A DNA stretch of 53,187 nt from Legionella erythra (GTDB lineage Bacteria > Pseudomonadota > Gammaproteobacteria > Legionellales > Legionellaceae), in the NCBI RefSeq assembly GCF_001467615.1, contig NZ_LNYA01000002.1, positions 1-53,187 on the forward strand, read 5' to 3'. Each line of letters begins with the position of its first letter. The stretch's first letter is position 1. The position numbers were made by a program, and so were the translations under genes. The notes beneath the pieces were generated by a model. That model was not told the origin of the DNA. It did no database searches and was given only the letters and a program-made list of their open reading frames with translations. Positions 2,462-14,410 of the stretch are shown one piece after another.

Positions 2462-4302
2462 AAATAGCGATAATGCAACAGGTATTGTGGTTGCCATTGC
2501 AGCCCGTTATCGTGGGCGTTGACCCTGAGCGATTTAACCCGCTTTGACGACAAAGCGGTGCCCTCACCAAAGAGCAAAGCAAATTCCTTGCTGTTTTCAA
2601 TAAGGGGAGACAGCAGAAATCCGGATTTTGCCATGCCAGCAATCAGGCGATAATGTTTTCTTTGCCCATCCGTTAACGTCACTTCAATGCCTAGCGCGGA
2701 TGGTTTGTACAGCCAAGTAAGTAAATGCCCGAGCCAATTGGTTTTGATTTCCATAGCCACAAATACACGGGATTTACTCGGCGGCAGGGTGATGGTTTCT
2801 CCCAGCGTATGAGTTTCCGTGACTGTGAACGGTTGTGGTTTTGCAGGCTGTCGCTGTTTTTTTAAAATTAAAAAATCCTTCACCAAATCAACAGGATAAT
2901 AGGCCGTGAGCAAGGCAGGCCAGGAGGCACCGTCTTCTAGGGAAGGCAGCCGTTCATCAATGGGTTCTATTTTAAACACAATCATGTCCGGTGCTTTTTC
3001 TGCCAGATGAATGGCATTTCGAATGGCCATGGCGTTAGAAAAAACCGAATAACTTTGAAAAACTGGCCGCGGTGCCCAATGGGCTTTGGAAGCAATCAAG
3101 AGGTTCTGTTCGAACGAATAAATATCACTTCGTCCCGGCAGGGGTGGAAATTTGACAAGATTAGCCAGGTAATCCTTTAACAAATAAAAATCTGTCTCTC
3201 GCCAGTGCCGGTCGTTCATGTCCATTTTTAGGGCTGTGAGGACATTGCTGCCAGTGACCTTTAAATAGGTCAGGGGAGAGTACGGAATAAAACCGGTCAA
3301 AATATAGTACCAGACTAATATGGCCAACAGCATCATGGGGAAGAGGCGTGAGGATTTTATCACGGTAGGCAGAAAAAAAGCCGCCATCAGGATAGCTGTG
3401 GCGGCGATGATGGAATGGCCGAAATGCCGGACGAAGCCAGCCTTAAATGCGCAAAATAAAAACAAGGCCAATACCGTGGTTAAAAAAAACTTGTCGATAC
3501 CTTGCAAGTCAGAGTGTTTGACCATGAGGATCAATAACAGCATGGAGCTGACTAAAAAGGCCAGGACTTCCCAACCATTTCCACTGGACGCCATGGCCTC
3601 GCTGTAGTTCAGGGCCATATCGATGGAACTCCCTAGATAAGGCGGTAAGACGGTCAGTGACTGATTGGCCAGGAGCCAACACAGGCATAAGGCCAGAAGA
3701 AAGGCAAGCCAAAGGATTAGAAGGGATTGTTTTTGTTTTTTTAAAAACAAATACAGACTGGCGGTGAACAGGATAAGCAGGGTTAACAGCAACAGGGTGC
3801 CCTTGACAAGAACCAGTAAACCCAAGGGGGCGGTTGTCAGCACCAGCAGCGTGCGCGAAGGATGAGGCAGATGACACTTGAATAGAGATAAACCCAGAAG
3901 CAGGGGGTAAGACAGCAGTAAGGCATCACGGGAATAAATCATGACCAGAAACAACACAATCAATGCCCACCGCCATCGCCAGGCGGTATCCTTCATTAAC
4001 CCGATCAGTAACAGGCCGTAACTTAACGCCAGGCAAAGGCACCCGCCATACATGAGATAAGCCGTATCGGGATGATAGGCTTTGGTATAAATGGCTGAAT
4101 AAGGGCCTAAGGTAAATACAATGTCTCGGCCAAAAGCTAAACCCTGCGACACCGCCTGATTAAGCGCCAAGGCCCAGGACGCATCGATGGTTAATCCCGG
4201 CATGATGGGTGTGAACGGGATAAAAAGCGGTAAAAGAACAGCCAGCATCAGGGCGTTAAATCCCCAAACAAGTCCTGATTTTTGCAACGCGGTTAAATCC
4301 AT
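2458..4302 (-). CDS. Polytopic inner-membrane protein of unknown function
   Basis: The protein is 614 residues. I see about ten to twelve hydrophobic segments in the first 370 residues, then a hydrophilic C-terminal domain of about 240 residues. Overall architecture resembles glycosyltransferase or O-antigen-polymerase-like membrane proteins, with early FTLGPYSAIY and a short charged loop after the first helix, but no catalytic motif is diagnostic. The ATG at 4302 is preceded by CAGGAC. It is transcribed toward the amidase gene and overlaps its end by four bases. Function not recognised. Confidence 0.7.
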   Translation of the reverse strand: MDLTALQKSGLVWGFNALMLAVLLPLFIPFTPIMPGLTIDASWALALNQAVSQGLAFGRDIVFTLGPYSAIYTKAYHPDTAYLMYGGCLCLALSYGLLLIGLMKDTAWRWRWALIVLFLVMIYSRDALLLSYPLLLGLSLFKCHLPHPSRTLLVLTTAPLGLLVLVKGTLLLLTLLILFTASLYLFLKKQKQSLLILWLAFLLALCLCWLLANQSLTVLPPYLGSSIDMALNYSEAMASSGNGWEVLAFLVSSMLLLILMVKHSDLQGIDKFFLTTVLALFLFCAFKAGFVRHFGHSIIAATAILMAAFFLPTVIKSSRLFPMMLLAILVWYYILTGFIPYSPLTYLKVTGSNVLTALKMDMNDRHWRETDFYLLKDYLANLVKFPPLPGRSDIYSFEQNLLIASKAHWAPRPVFQSYSVFSNAMAIRNAIHLAEKAPDMIVFKIEPIDERLPSLEDGASWPALLTAYYPVDLVKDFLILKKQRQPAKPQPFTVTETHTLGETITLPPSKSRVFVAMEIKTNWLGHLLTWLYKPSALGIEVTLTDGQRKHYRLIAGMAKSGFLLSPLIENSKEFALLFGEGTALSSKRVKSLRVNAHDNGLQWQPQYLLHYRYF

Positions 4303-4445
4303 GTCCTGTCCTGAAATAGCCTCGCAGGCGTCATTATGCCAGAGATTGGCAGAATTCTGCTGTTGTTTTAACGTGTTTACAAATTGAATATAAATTACTG
4401 CTCAGGCTAAACTAATGCTCCTGTAAACGGCTAGGGATTGTTATC

Positions 4446-5291
4446 ATGCCAACATTTACTGCCGCCCTGTTGGCGGCAACCTATAAGAATGGAAAGCCCA
4501 GCGGCGCCCTGACAGAGGTGCATGCCCGGGCGGAGCATCACCGCTTTAAAAAGGACTATCTTTTTAAAGACAAAGCGATACCCAAAGCGGTCTATGCTTC
4601 TCGCTTGATTCAACATTATCTGATTATTGACGCGTTGGAAAAGCAATTAGCAACGCTGCCCGAGGAAAAGGCGCAATCAATCAGTGCGTTTTTTTCTTTA
4701 TCCTACCTCGGGGAGCTTTGGCGTACCTCGGGCATAGAAAAAGATTTGCGGCAATTAGGTATCAATCCAGAAGAAATCATGGCGAGTGAAGTCGCCCCTG
4801 CAACGGTGAAGTATCTTGGAAAAATTGAAAACGCGTCGCCACTGGCATTGCTAACCCATTTCATGGTCCATGTCGCGGGTTTTATGCATGGTGGGAATAT
4901 CATTCTTAGCAAATACATTAAGCCTAGTAATGAATTGACCACCTATCAGATTTCAACGCACCAATATGATTTCTCAGCCGCATTTCCCTTATTGCCGGAA
5001 AAGAAAGGTTCCTTGATGGGGCTGTACGAGGATATGGTAGTGCATCTGGATGCCAATCTGTTGCTTTCACCCGTTGACTATGACGAGGTTTTAAACGAGG
5101 CACGGGATGTGTATGAGGCCATGACGACTATTTATGATGATTTATGTACCATGCAAATCCGTAAACCTCTTGTATCGCCCGCTTCCATCGTCACGATAGG
5201 AGTAAGCCTTATCGCCGTGGCCTGGATTTTAAAATGGCTGTTTGATTGGATGAACCCTGTCGTCAATTCCCTGCCAGCGGCTAATCCTTAA
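4446..5291 (+). CDS. Heme-oxygenase-like protein with C-terminal membrane anchor
   Basis: The 281-residue protein resembles biliverdin-producing heme oxygenases, which open heme to biliverdin, CO and iron. The proximal-helix pattern TEVHARAEHHRF (His about 26) matches the heme-ligating EVHxxAE of HO-1, followed by FKKDYLFKDKAIPKAVYA and a LxxLYHIYxALE-like stretch. The distal glycine-rich GDxSGGQ of canonical enzymes is altered to a form around FMHGGNIILSKYI. Residues about 247-268 form a single hydrophobic helix ending in a short Asn/Pro-rich tail, giving a tail-anchored topology like eukaryotic HO-1. Start ATG has AGGGA eight bases upstream. Catalysis is not proven; it could be a heme-binding relative. 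Confidence 0.7.
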   Translation: MPTFTAALLAATYKNGKPSGALTEVHARAEHHRFKKDYLFKDKAIPKAVYASRLIQHYLIIDALEKQLATLPEEKAQSISAFFSLSYLGELWRTSGIEKDLRQLGINPEEIMASEVAPATVKYLGKIENASPLALLTHFMVHVAGFMHGGNIILSKYIKPSNELTTYQISTHQYDFSAAFPLLPEKKGSLMGLYEDMVVHLDANLLLSPVDYDEVLNEARDVYEAMTTIYDDLCTMQIRKPLVSPASIVTIGVSLIAVAWILKWLFDWMNPVVNSLPAANP

Positions 5292-5307
5292 GCCTTGTTT
5301 TTCTGGT

Positions 5308-5330
5308 GCGGCGGTGTTTGGAACTGCCGC
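5308..5330 (+). terminator. Stem-loop after the heme-oxygenase-like gene
   Basis: GCGGCGGT at 5308-5315 pairs with ACTGCCGC at 5323-5330 (one G-U pair), with a seven-base loop, 16 bases after the stop codon. No clean T-run follows, so termination may be weak. Confidence 0.35.
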
Positions 5331-5489
5331 GCTGATTTGCCCTGTTACAACTTGTCTTTTTAAAAGGGTAATTGTTACTCGTTTACTAAATGTCGAATGT
5401 CTCCCATCATATCGCCACCTGAGAGTAATCAAGGCAGGCAGGGCTCATGAGGAGCGTTGCAGACTAACACTTAATCTCGGGTATCAACT

Positions 5490-5517
5490 GCCTGGCAGCA
5501 ATGGAATAGTGCCAGGC
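5490..5517 (+). promoter_or_regulatory. Leader stem-loop upstream of the precursor peptide gene
   Basis: GCCTGGCA at 5490-5497 and TGCCAGGC at 5510-5517 form a perfect 8-bp stem with a 12-base loop. It lies 13 bases before the AGGAG ribosome site (5531-5535). A weak promoter could be TTACAA (5345-5350) with GGTAAT (5367-5372). The hairpin may stabilise or regulate the peptide message. Confidence 0.4.
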
Positions 5518-5542
5518 TTCTTCAACAATTAGGAGTAATTTT

Positions 5543-5719
5543 ATGGAAAAAAACAACGAGCGAGTCCTGGCTTATTCAATGGCAAAGCCATTATCAGAAA
5601 AAGAAATGATGGAAGTGGCTGGAGGTGGGGCTAACTACACCACAAGACACACAATTCGTGTGACCGGGGGGACAGGGCCGTCAGCCGATGTGGCTTATGA
5701 CGTAAGCGTTGATTGGTAA
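5543..5719 (+). CDS. Double-glycine RiPP precursor peptide (candidate graspetide precursor)
   Basis: A 58-residue peptide whose ATG lies seven bases after a strong AGGAG. The leader ends in LSEKEMMEVAGGG, the classic pattern recognised by C39 peptidases (leucine and hydrophobic positions spaced before Gly-Gly, cut after GG). The core after cleavage, beginning ANYTTRHTIRVTGGTG, is rich in Thr/Ser in its first half and carries three Asp residues in its last 13 positions, ending in Trp. Thr/Ser donors before Asp acceptors are the residues ATP-grasp graspetide ligases join by omega-esters. The microviridin PFFARFLE leader motif is absent, so ligase recognition must differ. It lies immediately before the ligase gene and four genes before a C39 exporter. 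Gene reality is strong from context; the chemistry is inferred. Confidence 0.8.
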   Translation: MEKNNERVLAYSMAKPLSEKEMMEVAGGGANYTTRHTIRVTGGTGPSADVAYDVSVDW

Positions 5720-5728
5720 TCTAACAGG

Positions 5729-5754
5729 ACTGGGGTTTTGTAAGAGACCCCAGT
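5729..5754 (+). promoter_or_regulatory. Intercistronic stem-loop between precursor and ligase genes
   Basis: ACTGGGGT at 5729-5736 and ACCCCAGT at 5747-5754 form a perfect 8-bp stem with a ten-base loop. It starts nine bases after the precursor stop. No T-run follows, so it is more likely a partial terminator or 3' stabiliser that gives more peptide message than enzyme message, a common arrangement in RiPP operons. Confidence 0.6.
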
Positions 5755-5776
5755 GCGAAAGCGACAGGGATTTTAC

Positions 5777-6898
5777 ATGAAGTGTTTAATTGTGACGGAG
5801 CCTGACGACAGTCATGCGCTGTGTGTTAGATTGGCATTGGAAAAAACGGGGCATGAAGTCCGCTTGCTCTTTACGGCGGATTTACCGACCAAACAGAAAA
5901 ACTCGGTTTACATTGATAATGTCAGTTACGAGTGGAAAAGTACGGATGCCGAACAATGCCTGCGCGACAATTATTATGATGTGGTCTGGTGGCGTCGCGC
6001 CCGCAAGCCGTTTGTACCTAGGGAGGCTGTCCATCCTGACGATTATCCGTTTGTTTTGCGTGAGAATATTCTTTTCCATGAATCCATCACCAACAACCTG
6101 GCACCCAAAGCCTGGTGGATTAACAGCAAAGAGTCGGCTCTGAGAGCCAATTCTAAACTGTTACAATTGAAATTGGCTGTGCAGTGTGGTCTGACTATCC
6201 CGTCCACGCTTTGCTCAAACGATCCGAAAGATATCAGGTATTTCCTGTTAAAACATGAAGATCAGGGGGTAGTCTACAAGCCGCTCTGTTCCAATGTCTG
6301 GTTTGAGGAACGGGCGCTTAAAATTGCGTACACCACCAAAGTGGCTTTCCTGGATTTACCCACGAATAAATTGCTGCAGTTGGCACCGGGGCTTTTCCAG
6401 AAAGAAATCAAAAAGAAATACGAGTTGCGTGTTACTTGTTTTGGAGATTACCTGGTTGCGGCCAGATTAAACTCTCAGCAACATGAGGACGGACGTATCG
6501 ACTGGCGTGCCATACCTGATGGTCAATTGACGGTTGAGCCTTATGCATTGCCGGCTGAAATGGAAAACAAGCTCAGGCATTTTATGAAAAAAATGGGGCT
6601 GGTATTTGGCTGCATTGATTTAATTGTTTCGACGGATGATCAGTATGTTTTTCTCGAAGTGAATGAGCAGGGGCAATTTTTATGGATTGAAGATTTAAAC
6701 CCCGCATTCCCCATGCTGGATCGATTTGTTCAGTTCCTCACGAATCGATCCCCTCATTTTCATCCGCTTGGTCAGGAGCCCAGGCATTGGGTTAGCGACT
6801 ATGAAGCTGAGGCCAACGAATGGATGGGGAGAAACATGAAGCAGCATGTCGAGCTCAACACGTTTAAAACTAACCAAGGACAAAGACAACATGCGTAA
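5777..6898 (+). CDS. MvdD/MvdC-type ATP-grasp peptide ligase (graspetide maturase)
   Basis: This 373-residue enzyme belongs to the ATP-grasp ligases that activate Asp/Glu side chains of a precursor peptide and join them to Thr/Ser or Lys side chains. The pre-ATP-grasp domain shows MKCLIVTEPDD and the VWWRRARKP strand (about 70-78). The ATP-grasp core shows KPLCSN, the KYELRVTCFGD block (214-224), CIDLIV (279-284) and FLEVNEQGQFLWIE (292-305), which matches the microviridin-ligase signature almost position for position, including the metal-binding Glu and Asn. I start at the ATG at 5777, after AGGGA, rather than a GTG 24 bases upstream. It follows the precursor gene and overlaps the next gene by eight bases. 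Only one ligase is present, where microviridin clusters have two. Confidence 0.85.
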   Translation: MKCLIVTEPDDSHALCVRLALEKTGHEVRLLFTADLPTKQKNSVYIDNVSYEWKSTDAEQCLRDNYYDVVWWRRARKPFVPREAVHPDDYPFVLRENILFHESITNNLAPKAWWINSKESALRANSKLLQLKLAVQCGLTIPSTLCSNDPKDIRYFLLKHEDQGVVYKPLCSNVWFEERALKIAYTTKVAFLDLPTNKLLQLAPGLFQKEIKKKYELRVTCFGDYLVAARLNSQQHEDGRIDWRAIPDGQLTVEPYALPAEMENKLRHFMKKMGLVFGCIDLIVSTDDQYVFLEVNEQGQFLWIEDLNPAFPMLDRFVQFLTNRSPHFHPLGQEPRHWVSDYEAEANEWMGRNMKQHVELNTFKTNQGQRQHA

Positions 6899-7916
6899 AT
6901 TATTTTGTGTTTTTTGTGTTATTTTTCCCATGGTTCTATCAGCTAAAACGACAATCGATCTGTTTGGCGATGAAGGGCGACGCGCGGATCATGTTCTTAA
7001 AAAATACAGTGGGCCGATACTGGCCCTGGAGGCATCATTACATCAGTTTTTATTAAATGATGAATTACAAGACCACCCTGAAAAACTCAAAGAAGCGGGT
7101 GAGCGGAAAAGGGCGCTGATTAATAAAATAAAAAAAGACTACGGTTATGCCTATGTCGATTTATCGACCGTCAACTATTCGAGCGACTCAGTCTATATCA
7201 CAATTGAAGTGATTCGTAACGATGAGACTTATCGCCTTAAATTTATTGATGATCATAAGCCTGTAGTGCACAGTAATAAAAATGATCTCATCCATGAGAT
7301 GGAGCGGTATAACCGACTCGGCATTCAATTATTTTTGAATGATCAACTGGATCCTGAAAAACTGAATTGCCCCTTATATCACTGTACCTGGGGTTTTGAA
7401 CATCCAAAATTAAAACCGTTTTATAAGCAATTTAAAGAGGGCGTTGCTGCCCAGAAACCCTTGATTATCGATACCCTGAATACCGATCCGGATCCGGAAA
7501 GACGAGCCGCGGCTGTGTTTTTAGTCGGGCATTTTGATAATCCGCAGGAAATAATTGATGTATTGGTTCCGCATGTGTTGGATAACGACAGTGAAATGCG
7601 AAATAATGCCGTGCGTGTCATCGGGACAACGCTGATGAAATACAAGCCCGCTCATTTCAACATCAACCCCTTCCTTCACTTGCTGTCATCGCCTTATGAC
7701 ACGGATAGAAACAAATCCTTGTTGGTTCTGCTGCAGGTTTGTGATGGTAATCAACAAGAGATAATTAAAAAGGGGAAAGAATCCTTGTTGGCGCTTTTAG
7801 CATTAAAACAACCCAATAATCATGAGCCAGCCTATCAGATTTTGAAAAAAGTCAGCGGTAAAACCTACAGCGATACCGATCTTGAAGCATGGCGAGCATG
7901 GGCTGACTCCGTTTAG
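6891..7916 (+). CDS. Exported HEAT-repeat-like protein of the RiPP cluster
   Basis: The 341-residue protein begins with a signal peptide (MRKLFCVFCVIFPMVLSA). The first half is a mixed alpha/beta region with an internal cysteine pair (NCPLYHC, about 159-165). Residues about 195-330 read as alpha-helical HEAT-type repeats, for instance DPERRAAAVFLVGHFDNP and DSEMRNNAVRVIGTTL. The ATG at 6891 has AAGGA upstream and overlaps the ligase stop codon, so it is translationally coupled to it. Because it is exported it should not take part in cytoplasmic cyclisation; immunity, chaperoning of the mature peptide, or a receptor role are possible. I do not recognise a named family. Confidence 0.75.
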   Translation: MRKLFCVFCVIFPMVLSAKTTIDLFGDEGRRADHVLKKYSGPILALEASLHQFLLNDELQDHPEKLKEAGERKRALINKIKKDYGYAYVDLSTVNYSSDSVYITIEVIRNDETYRLKFIDDHKPVVHSNKNDLIHEMERYNRLGIQLFLNDQLDPEKLNCPLYHCTWGFEHPKLKPFYKQFKEGVAAQKPLIIDTLNTDPDPERRAAAVFLVGHFDNPQEIIDVLVPHVLDNDSEMRNNAVRVIGTTLMKYKPAHFNINPFLHLLSSPYDTDRNKSLLVLLQVCDGNQQEIIKKGKESLLALLALKQPNNHEPAYQILKKVSGKTYSDTDLEAWRAWADSV

Positions 7917-7942
7917 GCCATGATAAGAACGTCGATTTGGAT

Positions 7943-8947
7943 ATGCCCATGAGTCAATTATTCAGGCAGGAAGTCCTCGATTTCAGAAAAACTAAAAATC
8001 TTGGTCCGGTGTCTATTAATATCCCCTTTCATTATTATGCTCAGTCCTTTGGCCTGGTAATTATTTCTAGCCTGATTATCCTGTTCATGACTTTCGCAGA
8101 ATACTCAGAGAAATACCGGGTTAATGGGTATTTGGATTACTCCAGGGGTATTATTCAGATTCACCCTGATAAAAGCGGGCTGATTGTGGAAAGTCGGGTA
8201 AGAAATCATCACCACGTCAGACAAGGGGATGTGTTATTTAAGATAGACACCTCCCAGTCTAACGCATCCCGCCAACATCAAATTTTTAGTCGCTTAAACC
8301 ATCAAAAACACCGGCTTAATCAAGACATCGATCGTCTAAAAAATGAGTTATCTGTTCTTAAGCCATTGCTTGCCGATAAATTTATCTCAGCCGAAGTGTA
8401 CAACAATAAAAAAGACCACCTCCATGAATTAATGAATAAACGAAACCAACTGGAAATTGAACGAATTCAGCATCAAAAAATGAATGCCTACACCATTCGG
8501 GCGCCGATTAATGGCATGCTGACGTCTATTCATTACCAGGTCGGTCAGCAGGTGGACCCTTCTGCCGAGCTGGTAAAAATTATCCCGGATGATGCGGATT
8601 TAATTGCTGAAATTCAGGTCCCTGTTAAGGACGCAGGGTTTATGACCAGGAATGAGCCGATTAGGCTTCATTACGATGCATACCCGTATGAGCGGTTTGG
8701 CACTTATTCGGCCGTCATCAAAGACATCGAGCCAGTGATTAGCTTTGCCCACGCCGATACCAACCCATGGACAACACGTAAACCGTATTACAGGGTTAGG
8801 GCTAAATTGGCGAGCCAGGTTGTGATGATTTATGGTCGGCAAAAGGCCTTACAGCAGGGGATGACTTTTTCGGCCGTGATGACAGGGACCCGCAGGAAAG
8901 TCTGGCAATGGATTTGGGAACCGATTGACCGTTTTATGGAAAGTTAA
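7943..8947 (+). CDS. HlyD-type membrane fusion protein of the RiPP exporter
   Basis: The protein of about 334 residues links an inner-membrane exporter to an outer-membrane channel. One transmembrane helix lies near residues 33-51. Then come the lipoyl/barrel half-motif (IHPDKSGLIVESRVRNHHHVRQGDVLFKID), a coiled-coil hairpin (about 110-170) and the returning lipoyl half (YTIRAPINGMLTSIHYQVGQQVDPSAELVKI). The start is ambiguous among TTG 7937, ATG 7943 and ATG 7949, none with a strong ribosome site. It precedes the ABC gene by four bases. No TolC gene is nearby. Confidence 0.85.
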   Translation: MPMSQLFRQEVLDFRKTKNLGPVSINIPFHYYAQSFGLVIISSLIILFMTFAEYSEKYRVNGYLDYSRGIIQIHPDKSGLIVESRVRNHHHVRQGDVLFKIDTSQSNASRQHQIFSRLNHQKHRLNQDIDRLKNELSVLKPLLADKFISAEVYNNKKDHLHELMNKRNQLEIERIQHQKMNAYTIRAPINGMLTSIHYQVGQQVDPSAELVKIIPDDADLIAEIQVPVKDAGFMTRNEPIRLHYDAYPYERFGTYSAVIKDIEPVISFAHADTNPWTTRKPYYRVRAKLASQVVMIYGRQKALQQGMTFSAVMTGTRRKVWQWIWEPIDRFMES

Positions 8948-8951
8948 ATTC

Positions 8952-11051
8952 ATGAGTGCAACGCAAATCAATTTTAAATGGCGGGGACGCCAAAGTCTTC
9001 CGGTTATTCTCCAGAATGAAACCGCTGAATGCGGTCATGCCTGTGTGGCGATGGTCAGTAATTATCACGGCCATGACTTGAATCTGCCTGCATTAAGGGC
9101 GCTATCCAACCCCTCCAGTCGGGGGATAACCTTATTGGATATGAATCGATTACTGACAGATCTTGGGTTTAGAGCCCGAGCGTTGCGCGTGTCGCTTCAG
9201 GAACTCCATTTGGTTCAGTGTCCTGCTATTTTGCATTGGGACTTAAACCATTTCGTCGTATTAAAACAGGTTAAAAAAGGGGATGTGCTTATCCATGACC
9301 CGGCGAGTGGTATGAGGAAGTGCACAATGGAAGAGGTGTCGAGATACTTTACCGGGATCGCGTTGGAAATTGAAAAAGCAGATGATTTTAAGGCAATCAG
9401 AAATAATCAATCGCTGACGCTGACCCACCTTGCCTCGTCAGTCCGCGGCGTAAAAAAATTCATTACCTTACTCATTCTGTTTTCAGCGCTCATCGAACTA
9501 TTCAGTCTGATTAATCCCTTGTTTATGCAATGTGTGACGGACCATATTATCAGTACCCATAATGCTTATAATTTATACTTTATTGCGCTTGGGTTTGCTC
9601 TTTTGGTTCTTATCCAGACGTTTATCGAATACATCCGCGGCCATGTGGTGATTTATGTCAGTAATCACCTGACCGAACAGTTCTCGTCGAATATTGTACA
9701 GCATATTCTCAAATTGCCGTTGGAATTTTTTGAGAAAAGGCATAAGGGCGATGTTCAATCAAGGTTTCAATCCATTGATGAAATCCAAAAAAAGATCAGT
9801 ACCGATTTTATCAGTACTCTTTTTGACGGTCTGATGATTGCCGTTAATCTGACGGTCATGGCGCTTTACAGTATTCAGTTAACCTGCATTGTGCTGATGG
9901 CTTTATCGCTGTACGTGCTCATTCGCCAGGCCAGTTATCATTTTTTAAAAAAGCAAACCGATACATCCATTGCCCAGCACGCAAAAGCGTCATCGGCTTT
10001 TCTTGAAACCCTGCATGGCATTTTACCGATTAAAGCGTTTTTAAAAGAACAAACCCAATTTAATACCTGGAGAAACGCATTCATTGCTTCGCTGAACGCG
10101 GATATTCGCATTGCACGCATGAATGTCATGTACCGTGTTGTCAATCAATTCCTCTTCCATATTGAACAGATCATTGTCGTATGCGTGGGTGCATCGCTGG
10201 TGTTGGCTAACCAGTTTTCACTGGGGATGCTCATAGCCTTTCTGGCTTACCGCTTGTCGTTGGTCAATAAAGCGTCCAGCTTTATTCAGAGCTTATTTGA
10301 TTACAGACTCATCACCATCCAACTCCATCGCTTGAGCGATATTGTGTTTCAGGAACCAGAAGAACTAAACCTTGGCAGTGGAGAACATAAACAACCCATT
10401 CAGGGGGCATTGCGTATGCAAGCGGTTAGTTTTCGGTATAACCCGCAAGGGGAGGATGTGATAAGCCGGCTTAGCTTTGACATTAAAGCGGGAGAAAAGG
10501 TAGTCATTACCGGTGCATCCGGATGCGGCAAATCGACACTGCTGAAGGTGGCCATGGGGCTTTTAAACAAAACGGAAGGCGAAATCTTCATTGACGGGAA
10601 ACCCTTGCAGGCGTTTGGTATCCACAACTTAAGGCGAATCTCTGCATCCGTCATGCAGGATGATGTATTACTCAGTGGATCCATTCTCAATAATATTGCT
10701 TTTTTCGATGAGGAAATTGATTTGGCGCGCGTACATGAATCGGCCAAACTGGCCTGTATCCATGACGAAATTGAGCAATTTCCCATGGGTTATGAGACCT
10801 TGGTCGGCGATATGGGGTCTACGCTTTCCGGTGGGCAAAAGCAACGCATTCTTCTGGCCAGAGCCTTGTACAAACAACCCAAAATTCTATTTCTCGATGA
10901 AGCAACCAGTCATCTGGACATTGAAAACGAACAAAAGATAAACCAGTCGCTTAAACACCTGGCGATGACCCAGGTGGTGATCGCTCACCGGCCGGAAACC
11001 ATAAAAATGGCTGACAGGGTCATTCATTTGGAGGGCAGGAAACCCTCATAG
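8952..11051 (+). CDS. Peptidase-containing ABC exporter (C39-ABC, bacteriocin type)
   Basis: A 699-residue exporter that cuts double-glycine leaders and pumps the peptide. The N-terminal C39 peptidase shows oxyanion Gln (about 21) and catalytic Cys (about 27) in QNETAECGHACVAMV, His in NHFVVL (about 100) and Asp in HDPASG (about 116). A six-helix transmembrane domain follows (about 155-450). The nucleotide-binding domain has Walker A GASGCGKST (about 521-529), signature LSGGQKQR (about 625), Walker B ILFLDEATS and the H-loop VIAHRPE. All catalytic residues are present. The ATG at 8952 is preferred over one 27 bases upstream. The C39 domain fits the Gly-Gly leader of the peptide at 5543. It meets corA tail to tail with a six-base overlap. 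Confidence 0.93.
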   Translation: MSATQINFKWRGRQSLPVILQNETAECGHACVAMVSNYHGHDLNLPALRALSNPSSRGITLLDMNRLLTDLGFRARALRVSLQELHLVQCPAILHWDLNHFVVLKQVKKGDVLIHDPASGMRKCTMEEVSRYFTGIALEIEKADDFKAIRNNQSLTLTHLASSVRGVKKFITLLILFSALIELFSLINPLFMQCVTDHIISTHNAYNLYFIALGFALLVLIQTFIEYIRGHVVIYVSNHLTEQFSSNIVQHILKLPLEFFEKRHKGDVQSRFQSIDEIQKKISTDFISTLFDGLMIAVNLTVMALYSIQLTCIVLMALSLYVLIRQASYHFLKKQTDTSIAQHAKASSAFLETLHGILPIKAFLKEQTQFNTWRNAFIASLNADIRIARMNVMYRVVNQFLFHIEQIIVVCVGASLVLANQFSLGMLIAFLAYRLSLVNKASSFIQSLFDYRLITIQLHRLSDIVFQEPEELNLGSGEHKQPIQGALRMQAVSFRYNPQGEDVISRLSFDIKAGEKVVITGASGCGKSTLLKVAMGLLNKTEGEIFIDGKPLQAFGIHNLRRISASVMQDDVLLSGSILNNIAFFDEEIDLARVHESAKLACIHDEIEQFPMGYETLVGDMGSTLSGGQKQRILLARALYKQPKILFLDEATSHLDIENEQKINQSLKHLAMTQVVIAHRPETIKMADRVIHLEGRKPS

Positions 11052-12020
11052 CCACTTTTTCCGTTTGAAATAAAAGAAGGGCAGCCAGGCTGAAAAGACC
11101 ATCAACAGAATGGCTAACGGATAACCGATATACCAGTCCAGTTCTGGAATATGTCTGAAGTTCATGCCGTAAATGCTCGCGATAAGTGTTGGGGGAAGAA
11201 AAAGGACAGCCGCCACAGTAAAACTCTTAATGATGTTATTTTGTTCAAGCGTAATCATGCCCAGGGTGGCATCGTGCAGGAAATTAAATTTGGTTGAGAG
11301 AAAGGCGGAATAATCGCTTAACGAGTTCACGTCTTTTCCGATAGTCGCCAGGATCGATTTCATGTCGCCTGATAGTTTGATGTTTTCGGCCTGACTTAAA
11401 AAAGAAATCAGTCGGGTAAACGACATCAGACTTTCCCGGACTTTGGTGCCTAAATCCCCATGGGCGCCAATCATGGCGATGATCTGTTTATACGTGATTT
11501 CTTCGCCGCTGCCTATCCGCTCGGTTTGACGGAAAATCAGGGCGGATGTTTTATCAAACGCATGGCTGATTTTTTCAAGAATATCAGCGAGGCGGTCAAC
11601 AGCTGCTTCAAAAAGGCCAATCAGTAAAACGGGGGCTGTGGGTTTGTTGTATTGCGGCAACCGTGATTTGAATAAACTGAATGCATACAATTCGCCATAG
11701 CGCAGGGTCATCAGAATCCGCTCGTTTAAAATAAACGTCACCACATCGGTTTGCACTTCCGGTGATTCAGATTTGGCAACCATCGTGGCTGTCATAAACA
11801 AGGTACCGTTTTCTGCATAAAGGCGACTCGATAACTCTATTTCTTCGACTTCGGTTTTGGTAGGGATATTAATTTGGAAAAAATCTTCGAGAAGCCGCTC
11901 TTCTTCGACGGTTAAATTCATTAAATCAAGCCATACTGCTTGCTGAAGGAGATGATGATTACTTGACGTTAATGGTTCAGTTTGTAGTCCTGATTCGTTA
12001 TTAAAATGGATAATGACCAT
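11046..12020 (-). CDS. corA: CorA-family magnesium/divalent cation channel
   Basis: The protein of 324 residues has a long soluble alpha-helical N-terminal domain and two C-terminal transmembrane helices. The GMN selectivity motif occurs as ASIYGMNFRHIPELDW between the two helices, and the tail is the usual basic FYFKRKKWL. Length matches E. coli CorA. I start at the ATG at 12020, which gives the usual N-terminus, instead of in-frame ATGs at 12053 and 12077. Substrate could also be cobalt or nickel, since CorA paralogues vary. Confidence 0.88.
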   Translation of the reverse strand: MVIIHFNNESGLQTEPLTSSNHHLLQQAVWLDLMNLTVEEERLLEDFFQINIPTKTEVEEIELSSRLYAENGTLFMTATMVAKSESPEVQTDVVTFILNERILMTLRYGELYAFSLFKSRLPQYNKPTAPVLLIGLFEAAVDRLADILEKISHAFDKTSALIFRQTERIGSGEEITYKQIIAMIGAHGDLGTKVRESLMSFTRLISFLSQAENIKLSGDMKSILATIGKDVNSLSDYSAFLSTKFNFLHDATLGMITLEQNNIIKSFTVAAVLFLPPTLIASIYGMNFRHIPELDWYIGYPLAILLMVFSAWLPFFYFKRKKWL

Positions 12021-12122
12021 ATCTGCTCTTTTTAAGGAGAATGGAATTAGCATACGTTTATCAGGGACTGGACACAAATTTTTTGAATAGACTCGCGTGG
12101 TTAATGACCGTATACCATTCTG

Positions 12123-12476
12123 TTAGCCGGGAGCTGGGGCATTGGCATTGTTTTTTAAGTGGTTGTCCATGGCGCTCTTCTTCGTATGCAAGTAGGGTGG
12201 ACTGTCCATAAAGACTTCAATCGCAACGTATTTAAGATGAGGGTTACCCATTACGGCATCCATAATGGCTTCTGTGCCGGCCAGTGTTAAACGACAGCCT
12301 AATAAACTCAAGCTCTCAAGATGGGTATTATGCTTAATAACCTTAATCAACCGTGCCTCATCCGCAGCCGTAAACGGAAATAAGTCGAAAATAGCGTCGG
12401 TCACGCGAGGATTGTTTTTTTCTAATTCCAAAAGGATTCTGTCTTTCCCAGCATGTGGATTATTTACATTAAACAT
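12123..12476 (-). CDS. Short leucine-rich-repeat protein
   Basis: The 117-residue protein has one to two ribonuclease-inhibitor-type LRR units: NTHLESLSLLGCRLTLAGTEAIMDAVMGNPHLKYVAIEVF. AGGAG lies six bases before the ATG. It sits nine bases downstream of the 641-residue gene and reads in the same direction, so the two are probably cotranscribed. It is too short to form a full solenoid and could be a fragment of a longer LRR protein. Function unknown. Confidence 0.65.
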   Translation of the reverse strand: MFNVNNPHAGKDRILLELEKNNPRVTDAIFDLFPFTAADEARLIKVIKHNTHLESLSLLGCRLTLAGTEAIMDAVMGNPHLKYVAIEVFMDSPPYLHTKKSAMDNHLKNNANAPAPG

Positions 12477-12484
12477 GGGTTCTC

Positions 12485-14410
12485 CTAGGAATTACTCATT
12501 GAGTTACGTTGAATATATTGGGCTTCATCGATTAAGCCTTCAATGTTATGAAGACAACGACCCAAGCCGCTTTTGGTAAAGCAGCCATACGTTTTACCCC
12601 GGCGCTTCTCGGCCATCTGATTTTCATTGAAGGCCTTTGAAATTTTCTCCTGAAGGTCAGGATACGATGTTACATGATTTAAATCGTTAAGTAATGTAGT
12701 CGCAATTTTTACTTTTTCATTCGTCAGGGCTTGGTCTCGGAAATTCCTGCTAATGAAATTCAATTCATACCCCTCTTTTTTCTTATTGGCGCGTGAATCG
12801 ATATAGTTTTTAAGCAAGCCTTGAGTGGAGGCAATTAATTCGGATGAGACCGGATTAGATTTATTCTGGCCTGACAAAAGCGGTGTTTTTTCATCCGGTT
12901 CAATCTCCTCGAGTGTTGGTTTAATTTCCTCGGGTTTCGGTTTAACCTGGTGGGATGTTGCTTTAATCTCCTGGAGTACCGTCTTGTCCGCGGTTACCTC
13001 CATTTTGCCGTTATCCGATTGATCTTTCACACCCTGCTTCGGCCATTGTACAGGCTTATAATCGGGCAGATGTTTTGGAGCATAGGTGGTATTAAAGTAA
13101 CGAAGGTATTGTTCCCATGCTTGATCATGAAGGGCATTAAAATCAGGGTCAATGCTGGCCTGTTGATCAAAAAATTGTTGAAAATTAGGCGCTTTACTGA
13201 TTTTATGCGGTTCAGGAGGGCAAACCTGATAACCTGGAACCAGTTCCAGGGCGTATTGAGCGGGACCGATCACTTCATGCAGGCTGTGGAATCCGCCGCC
13301 GACAATATAGGCTACCACTGCAGCCAGATAATTCTTTTTAAGATCAACATCATTCAGATTTGCCAGAAATTCCATTTGCCCGAGAAGCAAACTGGTCATT
13401 CCAGAGGGACCAGCCACATAAATGGCATCGTTTTCAATGAGATCAAGGACATATGGGGAATGAAGGTCTGGCCGCTGTTCTTTGCAATCCGGAATCCAGC
13501 TACCCTGTTCGGTTGGGAATCCTGAAGCATGTTCCTCTTGGCCATTTAGCATCAGGCCCAATTGGTTGTGGGTTCTTGTATTGATTGGTCCTGAGCGGCC
13601 ACGATTCCCTTTAGCCGTATAAAGAGGACTTCCATAAAACAAATCATCGGCAATATAACCACGATACCGTCTTCCTTCCCAGGTCCCCCGGATCCCTTCC
13701 GTAAAAAATTTAATCAATCGTGCGTCCTCGGCGCTCCTGCTTTCTTGATCTAGCGGTTTTTCGTAGAGATCGCTGACAATGTTTCTTAATTTACCTACAG
13801 GTACCCGAGCAGGGGCCGTGGTAATGGAAACGCCGCGGGTAATGCACTGAGCATATTTAAAATGAATAAACATAATGCGGAGAAAATCTTCTGGTTTATT
13901 ATCAGCCAGTATTTTTATAATCTTTTCAGGCGTGAGTTCTTCATTATTGGGGAAGGCGCCAAGCGCAATAGCAATATTGTTACCCTGACGTAATACATCG
14001 AGATCGTCGAGCTCCTTTTCACGCTCCTTAATCAGTTTTATCAGCTCGGCTGATACGCGACCCACGGCGTTCCTAATCGCAGGGGTTGGGCTTTTCAGGA
14101 GGAGCACGGGTACTTCGGACTCCAGGCGACGCCCAAGGGGATTTTCAAATTTTTCTTGCGGGCTTTGCTGAAAAGTGGCCGCCTTAATATCTATAATTAA
14201 CGCCGCAATGTTCGGGACGTCTGCGAATTTCTCTAAGATTGCTATGACTTGTTGAGGATTTTGTTCATGATTTGCAATGGCGCTTTTAATTTGAGCAATG
14301 GCACGATCAATACGATCAGTTAACTTTTTATTATCCGCGATTCCATTTTTTAAACGCATCAATTCCATGATGGCAACGGTGTAGGCTTCGGTTTTGGATT
14401 TAAATAGCAT
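12485..14410 (-). CDS. Large effector-like protein with S-HxxxE-type motif (paralogue of the divergent gene)
   Basis: The 641-residue protein has no signal peptide. A central domain shares blocks with the product of 14537-15919: GSWIPDC/ASWMPDC, YVAGPSGMTSLL (Ser about 336) and GGGFHSLHEV (His 375, Glu 379), giving Ser, 39 residues, then HxxxE. That combination resembles the S-HxxxE site of the Legionella phosphoryl-AMP transferase LnaB, which acts on phosphoribosyl ubiquitin and needs actin. The resemblance is motif-level only. The C-terminal third is a low-complexity Pro/Glu/Lys stretch followed by a helical tail. Start site is weak. Likely a Dot/Icm effector; target unknown. Confidence 0.7.
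   Translation of the reverse strand: MLFKSKTEAYTVAIMELMRLKNGIADNKKLTDRIDRAIAQIKSAIANHEQNPQQVIAILEKFADVPNIAALIIDIKAATFQQSPQEKFENPLGRRLESEVPVLLLKSPTPAIRNAVGRVSAELIKLIKEREKELDDLDVLRQGNNIAIALGAFPNNEELTPEKIIKILADNKPEDFLRIMFIHFKYAQCITRGVSITTAPARVPVGKLRNIVSDLYEKPLDQESRSAEDARLIKFFTEGIRGTWEGRRYRGYIADDLFYGSPLYTAKGNRGRSGPINTRTHNQLGLMLNGQEEHASGFPTEQGSWIPDCKEQRPDLHSPYVLDLIENDAIYVAGPSGMTSLLLGQMEFLANLNDVDLKKNYLAAVVAYIVGGGFHSLHEVIGPAQYALELVPGYQVCPPEPHKISKAPNFQQFFDQQASIDPDFNALHDQAWEQYLRYFNTTYAPKHLPDYKPVQWPKQGVKDQSDNGKMEVTADKTVLQEIKATSHQVKPKPEEIKPTLEEIEPDEKTPLLSGQNKSNPVSSELIASTQGLLKNYIDSRANKKKEGYELNFISRNFRDQALTNEKVKIATTLLNDLNHVTSYPDLQEKISKAFNENQMAEKRRGKTYGCFTKSGLGRCLHNIEGLIDEAQYIQRNSMSNS

What the first reader, a model, noticed from the sequence alone, without database searches (positions are those of the whole stretch)
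5543..11051. A five-gene graspetide-like RiPP pathway with C39 export in a Legionella-type genome
The sequence shows, in order: a 58-residue peptide with a Gly-Gly leader, an MvdD-type ATP-grasp ligase with the FLEVNEQGQFLWIE signature, an exported HEAT-like protein, an HlyD fusion protein and a C39-ABC exporter with all catalytic residues. Microviridin and related graspetides are made by such ligases. Here a single ligase, a double-glycine leader and a C39 exporter are combined with an exported HEAT-like protein, an arrangement I do not recognise as described.
Basis: partly seen in the sequence, partly recalled or inferred. Interest (0 to 1): 0.9.

Follow-up and report, generated by a model that had tools for sequence, protein, structure and literature searches.

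The report
Legionella stapled-hairpin peptide gene cluster
This Legionella operon appears to make a small peptide folded into a hairpin and stapled by three side-chain bonds, then trim and export it together with a little-noticed exported helper protein; the chemistry is of a known kind, while the helper protein looks new.

Summary
Observation confirmed. Window 5543-11051 (+) holds, in order, a 58-aa double-glycine precursor, a graspetide-type ATP-grasp ligase, an exported HEAT protein, HlyD and a C39-ABC exporter. It is conserved: ligase matches in 68 of 143 Legionellaceae genomes; the HEAT gene directly follows the ligase in 59 of 81 units. The graspetide reading is supported: 53 of 86 precursors carry [TS]x3[TS]x3[TS]...Dx3Dx3D (shuffles mean 0.023), predicting three nested Thr-Asp esters in a hairpin (T33-D57, T37-D53, T41-D49). 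Not wholly new: graspetides with C39 exporters are known, and Gra-7 of L. pneumophila was published as dehydrated three times (PMC9576775). I found no description of the HEAT protein: it is predicted as a POTRA-like domain plus ARM/HEAT solenoid, present in 53 of 53 genomes with this exporter and absent from 9 of 15 ligase genomes without an exporter match. In three species the ligase has lost catalytic residues while the upstream peptide lacks GG and ladder, and exporter and HEAT gene are missing: a natural control. Verdict: new variant of a known kind. Ring pattern and helper role are inferred.

The parts
5543..5719 (+). Precursor peptide, 58 aa; leader 1-28 (conserved RVLAY, GG at 27-28), core 29-58; predicted rungs T33-D57, T37-D53, T41-D49
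   Evidence: dN/dS 0.03-0.04
5727..5755 (+). RNA hairpin between precursor and ligase genes, no U-tract; recurs in relatives
   Evidence: window z -3.9; 41 of 64 stretches z <= -2
5777..6898 (+). Graspetide-type ATP-grasp ligase, 373 aa (listed ORF starts at 5753)
6891..7916 (+). Exported companion protein, 341 aa: signal peptide (by eye), POTRA-like domain (about residues 19-110), ARM/HEAT solenoid (about 125-341)
7937..8947 (+). HlyD-family membrane fusion protein (ATG at 7943 possible)
8952..11051 (+). C39 peptidase-ABC exporter, 699 aa (listed ORF starts at TTG 8925)

Best explanation
A graspetide (omega-ester RiPP) operon. A 58-aa precursor is made; the ATP-grasp ligase recognises the conserved leader (RVLAY region) and joins three Thr to three Asp side chains, T41-D49, T37-D53 and T33-D57, nested around a 7-residue loop (42-48), so the core becomes a hairpin with three covalent rungs on one face (three losses of water). 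The C39 domain cuts after G27-G28 and the ABC exporter with HlyD (and presumably the cell's TolC) secretes the 30-aa product. The exported POTRA-HEAT protein acts in the periplasm on the same product, most likely as a dedicated binder that protects the producer (immunity or receptor), less likely as an export accessory. Shown here: gene order, conservation, motif, co-occurrence, predicted folds. Inferred: the chemistry, ring pattern, cleavage, export and the companion's role. My odds: graspetide chemistry 0.93; three nested esters in this register 0.65; companion tied to the exported product 0.75.
For: Ligase: E 5.7e-56 to 2.5e-51 to the three closest graspetide-ligase models, 1.7e-42 to solved 5ig9; 71 of 77 intact ligases keep all of R218, D281, E294, N296 (roles of these residues recalled). 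Precursor: 53 of 86 distinct precursors fit the ladder; shuffled cores mean 0.023, at most 1 in any of 1000 rounds; other spacings give at most 14. Ladder lengths agree in 65 of 85 cores against mean 48.1 and maximum 59 in 5000 re-pairings; the loop is 7-8 in 48 of 54 three-rung and in 13 of 15 two-donor cores, so the outer rung is the one missing, as nesting predicts. Asp strand: hydrophobic at 129 of 184 odd against 21 of 78 even positions in 39 non-redundant three-rung cores. Published Gra-7: three dehydrations, for precursor A localised to the core after C39 (LahT150) digestion (PMC9576775). Companion: 53 of 53 exporter genomes. Coupled loss in G002, G005, G006: no exporter or companion match, peptide without GG or ladder, ligase with R218V, D281S, N296H.
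Against: No bond was measured. 33 of 86 precursors miss the full motif; 8 of 85 cores have three donors and two acceptors, 3 the reverse with two donors, 8 only one donor in register. The register was chosen by maximising the ladder and sequences share ancestry, so significance is overstated. The Thr strand does not alternate cleanly (positions -5 and -7 hydrophobic in only 9% and 19% of 54 cores). T34, T44 and S47 are other possible donors. Precursors were collected by a leader pattern, so outliers are missed; 16 of 78 ligase units had none within 700 bases. Three otherwise intact ligases lack one catalytic residue (L080, L088, L108). For the companion: whole copies exist outside clusters (L149, in a genome without ligase or exporter match; L150), and 6 of 15 ligase genomes without an exporter match have it.
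Confidence: 0.7

Rival explanations
1. Same class, other ring pattern: the three bonds interlock or use other donors (T34, T44, S47), as in cage-like microviridins or rosaritide.
For: Interlocked three-bond graspetides exist (PMC13097080); the core has spare Thr/Ser; the Gra-7 links were not mapped.
Against: The 4-residue step on both strands, agreement of ladder lengths and the constant loop favour nesting.
Confidence: 0.22
2. The POTRA-HEAT companion is an export or assembly accessory (periplasmic chaperone of the HlyD/ABC channel or of the peptide), not a protective binder.
For: 53 of 53 exporter genomes have it; it evolves at the rate of HlyD (dN/dS 0.12-0.13 and 0.13-0.14); POTRA domains act in periplasmic assembly (PMC13067283 passages).
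Against: Whole copies outside clusters, one in a genome without ligase or exporter match (L149, L150).
Confidence: 0.35
3. The ligase does not cross-link but adds residues (RimK-like), or the peptide is a plain GG bacteriocin or signal.
For: Weak Pfam RimK match (17.4 bits, under its cut-off of 21); weak bacteriocin-leader matches to the peptide, all under cut-off.
Against: Much stronger graspetide-ligase matches, the donor/acceptor ladder and the Gra-7 precedent.
Confidence: 0.05
4. A decaying, inactive cluster.
For: Some relatives are broken (L114, L060), and three species have lost ligase catalysis.
Against: In the window all five frames are open and dN/dS is 0.03-0.14.
Confidence: 0.02

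Closest known systems
Gra-7, group 8 graspetide of Legionella pneumophila (PMC9576775; abstract, passages and section 11 seen)
   Same: Legionella; ATP-grasp ligase; product dehydrated three times; precursor A cut by a C39 peptidase; two precursors per ligase, as in some relatives here (L062, L100)
Stem-loop graspetides OEP6-1, fuscimiditide, amycolimiditide (PMC12291112, passages seen)
   Same: Nested cross-links forming a stem-loop; OEP6-1 has three
   Different: Here a 4-residue step on both strands, GG/C39 export and a POTRA-HEAT companion; sequences not compared
Microviridin-type ligases 5ig9, 5ig8, 7m4s, CdnC 7mgv, and 7drm (names MdnC/MdnB and PsnB recalled)
   Same: Ligase homology, E 1.7e-42 to 1.1e-6
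   Different: No PFFARFL in the leader (motif as named in PMC8939145); different core; below all NCBIfam subfamily cut-offs
Rosaritide with partner protein MirC (PMC13097080; abstract, sections 5 and 7, passages seen)
   Same: Graspetide cluster with an extra conserved protein; three macrolactones
   Different: MirC is a PPIase-like partner of the synthetase; here the companion has a signal peptide (by eye) and goes with the exporter
POTRA domains of BamA, Omp85, TamA
   Same: Predicted fold of the companion's N-terminal domain ranks them first
   Different: No outer-membrane barrel; no Pfam POTRA match; joined to an ARM/HEAT solenoid

Membership tests
Graspetide (RiPP class) | ATP-grasp ligase of the graspetide superfamily beside the precursor | tested here: met
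   (E 5.7e-56 to 2.5e-51)
Graspetide (RiPP class) | Core with donor (T/S/K) and acceptor (D/E) residues in a conserved pattern | tested here: met
   53 of 86 distinct precursors; 54 of 85 distinct cores by the second count
Graspetide (RiPP class) | Macrolactone or macrolactam bonds made by the ligase | not testable with these tools
   needs mass spectrometry; published for Gra-7 (PMC9576775), not for this locus
NCBIfam MvdD and MvdC equivalogs | Score above the curated cut-off | tested here: not met
   174.8 of 475 and 174.7 of 425 bits
Graspetide group 8 | Ligase groups with group 8; group 8 core consensus | not tested
   group sequences and consensus not in the texts held; Gra-7 is placed in group 8 by PMC9576775
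C39 peptidase-containing ABC exporter with GG substrate | C39 domain with catalytic residues, ABC domains, GG leader in the substrate | tested here: met
   (residues assigned by eye)
Microviridin | PFFARFL leader motif | tested here: not met
   absent from the 58-aa sequence; motif as named in PMC8939145
POTRA domain | beta-alpha-alpha-beta-beta fold | tested here: met
POTRA domain | Match to a Pfam POTRA family | tested here: not met
   none among 10 members at E <= 0.01
ARM/HEAT solenoid | HEAT_2 match and helical repeat fold | tested here: met

The most novel reading that the evidence does not exclude
The product is a covalently stapled amphipathic beta-hairpin, often ending in Trp (26 of 54 three-rung cores), that imitates an outer-membrane-protein strand and acts on the BAM machinery of competing bacteria, as darobactin does (PMC10945584 passages). 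The POTRA-HEAT companion is its dedicated periplasmic binder, taking the hairpin by strand addition to the POTRA sheet and so protecting the producer.
Probability: 0.08. Interest if true: 0.92.

Novelty: new variant of a known kind. Interest (0 to 1): 0.58.

Why it matters
If right, a widespread exported peptide of legionellae (ligase matches in 68 of 143 genomes) has a covalent structure that can be predicted from sequence, and a distinct exported companion (POTRA-like plus HEAT) marks these operons. In the one annotated record that I opened (L. adelaidensis) ligase and companion are named 'hypothetical protein', so such clusters can be overlooked. The strict 4-residue ladder makes the ring pattern directly testable, and the three species with a dead ligase show a peptide-modifying enzyme apparently kept for another use.

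Tried and rejected
One search covered an unrelated ATP-grasp family (PF14305) and rang nowhere, controls included; it says nothing about this ligase. In one search my HEAT query was read from the wrong base (out of frame); corrected from then on. Rfam gave no match at 4000-12500 at gathering scores. Promoter and terminator scans were at shuffle level (8 against a mean of 11.1; 7 against 6.3). PADLOC gave three matches, all within residues 500-694 of the exporter, which is its ABC-ATPase part, and PHROGs one generic ligase match, so no defence or phage link was seen. Plasmid collection: of 87 records with a match the best, and the only Legionella among the 25 listed, is L. adelaidensis 'plasmid 26', which carries dnaA, dnaN and rpmH and so looks chromosomal. 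Immunity by fast divergence was considered: companion dN/dS (0.12-0.13) is like HlyD (0.13-0.14), not raised. The PDB comparison of the whole companion listed only the solenoid, so the N-terminal part was folded alone; I had noted it as POTRA-like before that search (note). 'Not described' for the companion rests on: searches for POTRA + HEAT repeat + periplasm (1 paper, not opened), graspetide + Legionella (3 hold, 2 listed), graspetide + group 8 (1), Legionella + RiPP + ATP-grasp (1), and no occurrence of 'HEAT' in the main texts of PMC8939145 and PMC13097080. Supplements could not be read, and subscription papers are mostly not held.
Full report
What is there. Five open genes lie on the + strand at 5543-11051. 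The peptide reads MEKNNERVLAYSMAKPLSEKEMMEVAGG | GANYTTRHTIRVTGGTGPSADVAYDVSVDW. The ligase start at 5777 is better supported than the listed 5753, because relatives align from it. Ligase and companion genes overlap by 8 bases (6891-6898); companion and hlyD are 20 bases apart. Pfam confirms HlyD and C39-ABC; the ligase lies in the graspetide-ligase superfamily but below every named subfamily's cut-off. Solved relatives by sequence are 5ig9, 7m4s, 7mgv, 5ig8, 9bou and 7drm.

Spread. The nearest named match is Legionella rubrilucens (89% ligase identity, L016). The ligase has a match in 11 of 11 genomes of the window's genus and in 68 of 143 of its family at E <= 1e-10, a few of them fragments. 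In an even sample of the class, 8 of 369 genomes match at E <= 1e-15; three are Legionellaceae, and G246 and G460, of one other family, carry the closest outside copies. In G246 the order peptide-ligase-companion is kept (companion 34% identical). The companion profile rings in 5 of 369 class genomes: the same three and those two, weakly and partially in G460.

Gene order. From the window and 74 fetched stretches (L051-L124) I took 83 ligase units of at least 850 bases. Of 81 with at least 1.2 kb downstream, 59 have the companion next within 450 bases, 12 have hlyD next, 1 a precursor, 9 none of these. Eight of the 12 are second units of tandem clusters, peptide1-ligase1-companion-peptide2-ligase2-hlyD-C39 (L054, L055, L056, L063, L071, L072, L073, L122); the others are L061, L080, L085 and L092. 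For L061 (G023), L080 (G054) and L092 (G089) the same genome has the companion elsewhere; for L085 (G058) no companion was found. Of 78 units with 700 bases upstream, 62 have a recognised precursor. Of 62 units with at least 5 kb downstream and 0.7 kb upstream, 49 have a precursor and also companion and exporter in the same stretch.

The precursor family. A leader pattern (R-V-L/F-A-Y ... GG, with variants) gave 88 precursors, 86 distinct. 53 of 86 carry [TS]x3[TS]x3[TS] followed by Dx3Dx3D; shuffling each core gave a mean of 0.023 and never more than 1 in 1000 rounds; no other pair of spacings from 1 to 6 exceeds 14. With E allowed and the best register chosen per core, 54 of 85 distinct cores have three donors and three acceptors, 11 two and two, 8 three and two, 12 other mixtures; 65 of 85 agree in length against a mean of 48.1 and a maximum of 59 in 5000 re-pairings. 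The innermost loop is 7-8 in 48 of 54 three-rung and 13 of 15 two-donor cores, so the outer rung is what the short ones lack: this fits nested, not parallel, links. The Asp strand alternates, hydrophobic at 179 of 254 odd and 26 of 108 even positions; K/R sits at even positions of the Thr strand in 43 of 108 against 18 of 216 odd ones; in 39 non-redundant cores 129 of 184 against 21 of 78, and 30 of 78 against 14 of 156. Against this, the Thr strand is hydrophobic at -3 and -9 but hardly at -5 and -7. These counts are not corrected for ancestry.

Prior work. PMC9576775 (abstract, passages, section 11 seen) reports Gra-7 from L. pneumophila: two precursors expressed with one ligase, three dehydrations each, localised to the core of A by a C39 peptidase, group 8, links not mapped. 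PMC8939145 (abstract and passages) lists C39-ABC exporters and HlyD among the commonest neighbours of graspetide ligases. PMC13097080 (abstract, sections 5 and 7, passages) lists group 8 among groups with NHLM-type transporters. PMC12291112 (passages) describes stem-loop graspetides with two, three and four nested links. So the class, the export route and nesting are known; I met neither the companion nor this double ladder in the parts that I read.

A natural control. G002, G005 and G006, in the window's own genus, keep a ligase homologue (48-51%) and a 63-aa upstream peptide. The peptide keeps RVLAYQLALTI but has RR where GG would be, and no ladder; exporter and companion gave no match. The ligase has V, S and H for R218, D281 and N296, a combination seen in no other of 77 intact ligases; three others lack one residue each (L080 and L088 at E294, L108 at N296). 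Both genes look constrained (ligase dN/dS 0.056-0.076 in three comparisons, peptide 0.036 in one; synonymous change is near saturation in all but one). So GG, ladder, catalysis, exporter and companion are lost together here, and the remnant pair has been kept, perhaps for something else.

RNA. Between precursor and ligase a hairpin without U-tract is found: window z -3.9, three relatives z -2.5 to -4.0 with changed but pairing stems; 41 of 64 such stretches, window included, have z <= -2, median -2.6 (100 shuffles each). A role in keeping precursor in excess of ligase is likely but inferred.

Verdict. A real, conserved graspetide operon: known class, new variant. Most uncertain are the ring pattern and the companion's role.

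Noticed in passing
L057, L058, L059 (G002, G006, G005): Ligase homologues with V, S, H for catalytic R, D, N, apparently under purifying selection, beside a 63-aa peptide that has the leader but neither GG nor ladder: a possible repurposed pseudo-ligase pair.
   Followed up: partly
window 5727-5755 and relatives: RNA hairpin between precursor and ligase genes, with different but pairing stems in close relatives.
   Followed up: partly
L155 (NZ_LR134435.1, L. adelaidensis 'plasmid 26'): A record named plasmid carries dnaA, dnaN, recF, rpmH, rnpA, yidC and mnmE and looks like a piece of chromosome; its ligase, companion and three small upstream ORFs are annotated as hypothetical proteins.
   Followed up: partly
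L149, L150, L151: Companion gene in a genome without ligase match (L149), away from any cluster gene (L150), or beside a precursor without ligase (L151).
   Followed up: partly
L054, L055 and L067 (second units): Second peptide-ligase units whose cores keep the Thr ladder; in L054 and L055 the acceptors alternate as DxDxD.
   Followed up: no
L070, L082, L087, L098, L100, L101, L102: Two-rung precursors (several of the form IPTxxxTG...PDxxxD); in L070, L082, L087, L100 and L101 beside another precursor of the same locus.
   Followed up: partly
window 4446-5291: Heme-oxygenase-like protein (Pfam E 3.6e-8) with a hydrophobic C-terminal stretch; similar ORFs lie upstream of the cluster in the three nearest relatives.
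   Followed up: no
L058, L059, L080, L092, L107, L108, L123: Helix-turn-helix-like genes beside ligase genes, judged by eye only.
   Followed up: no
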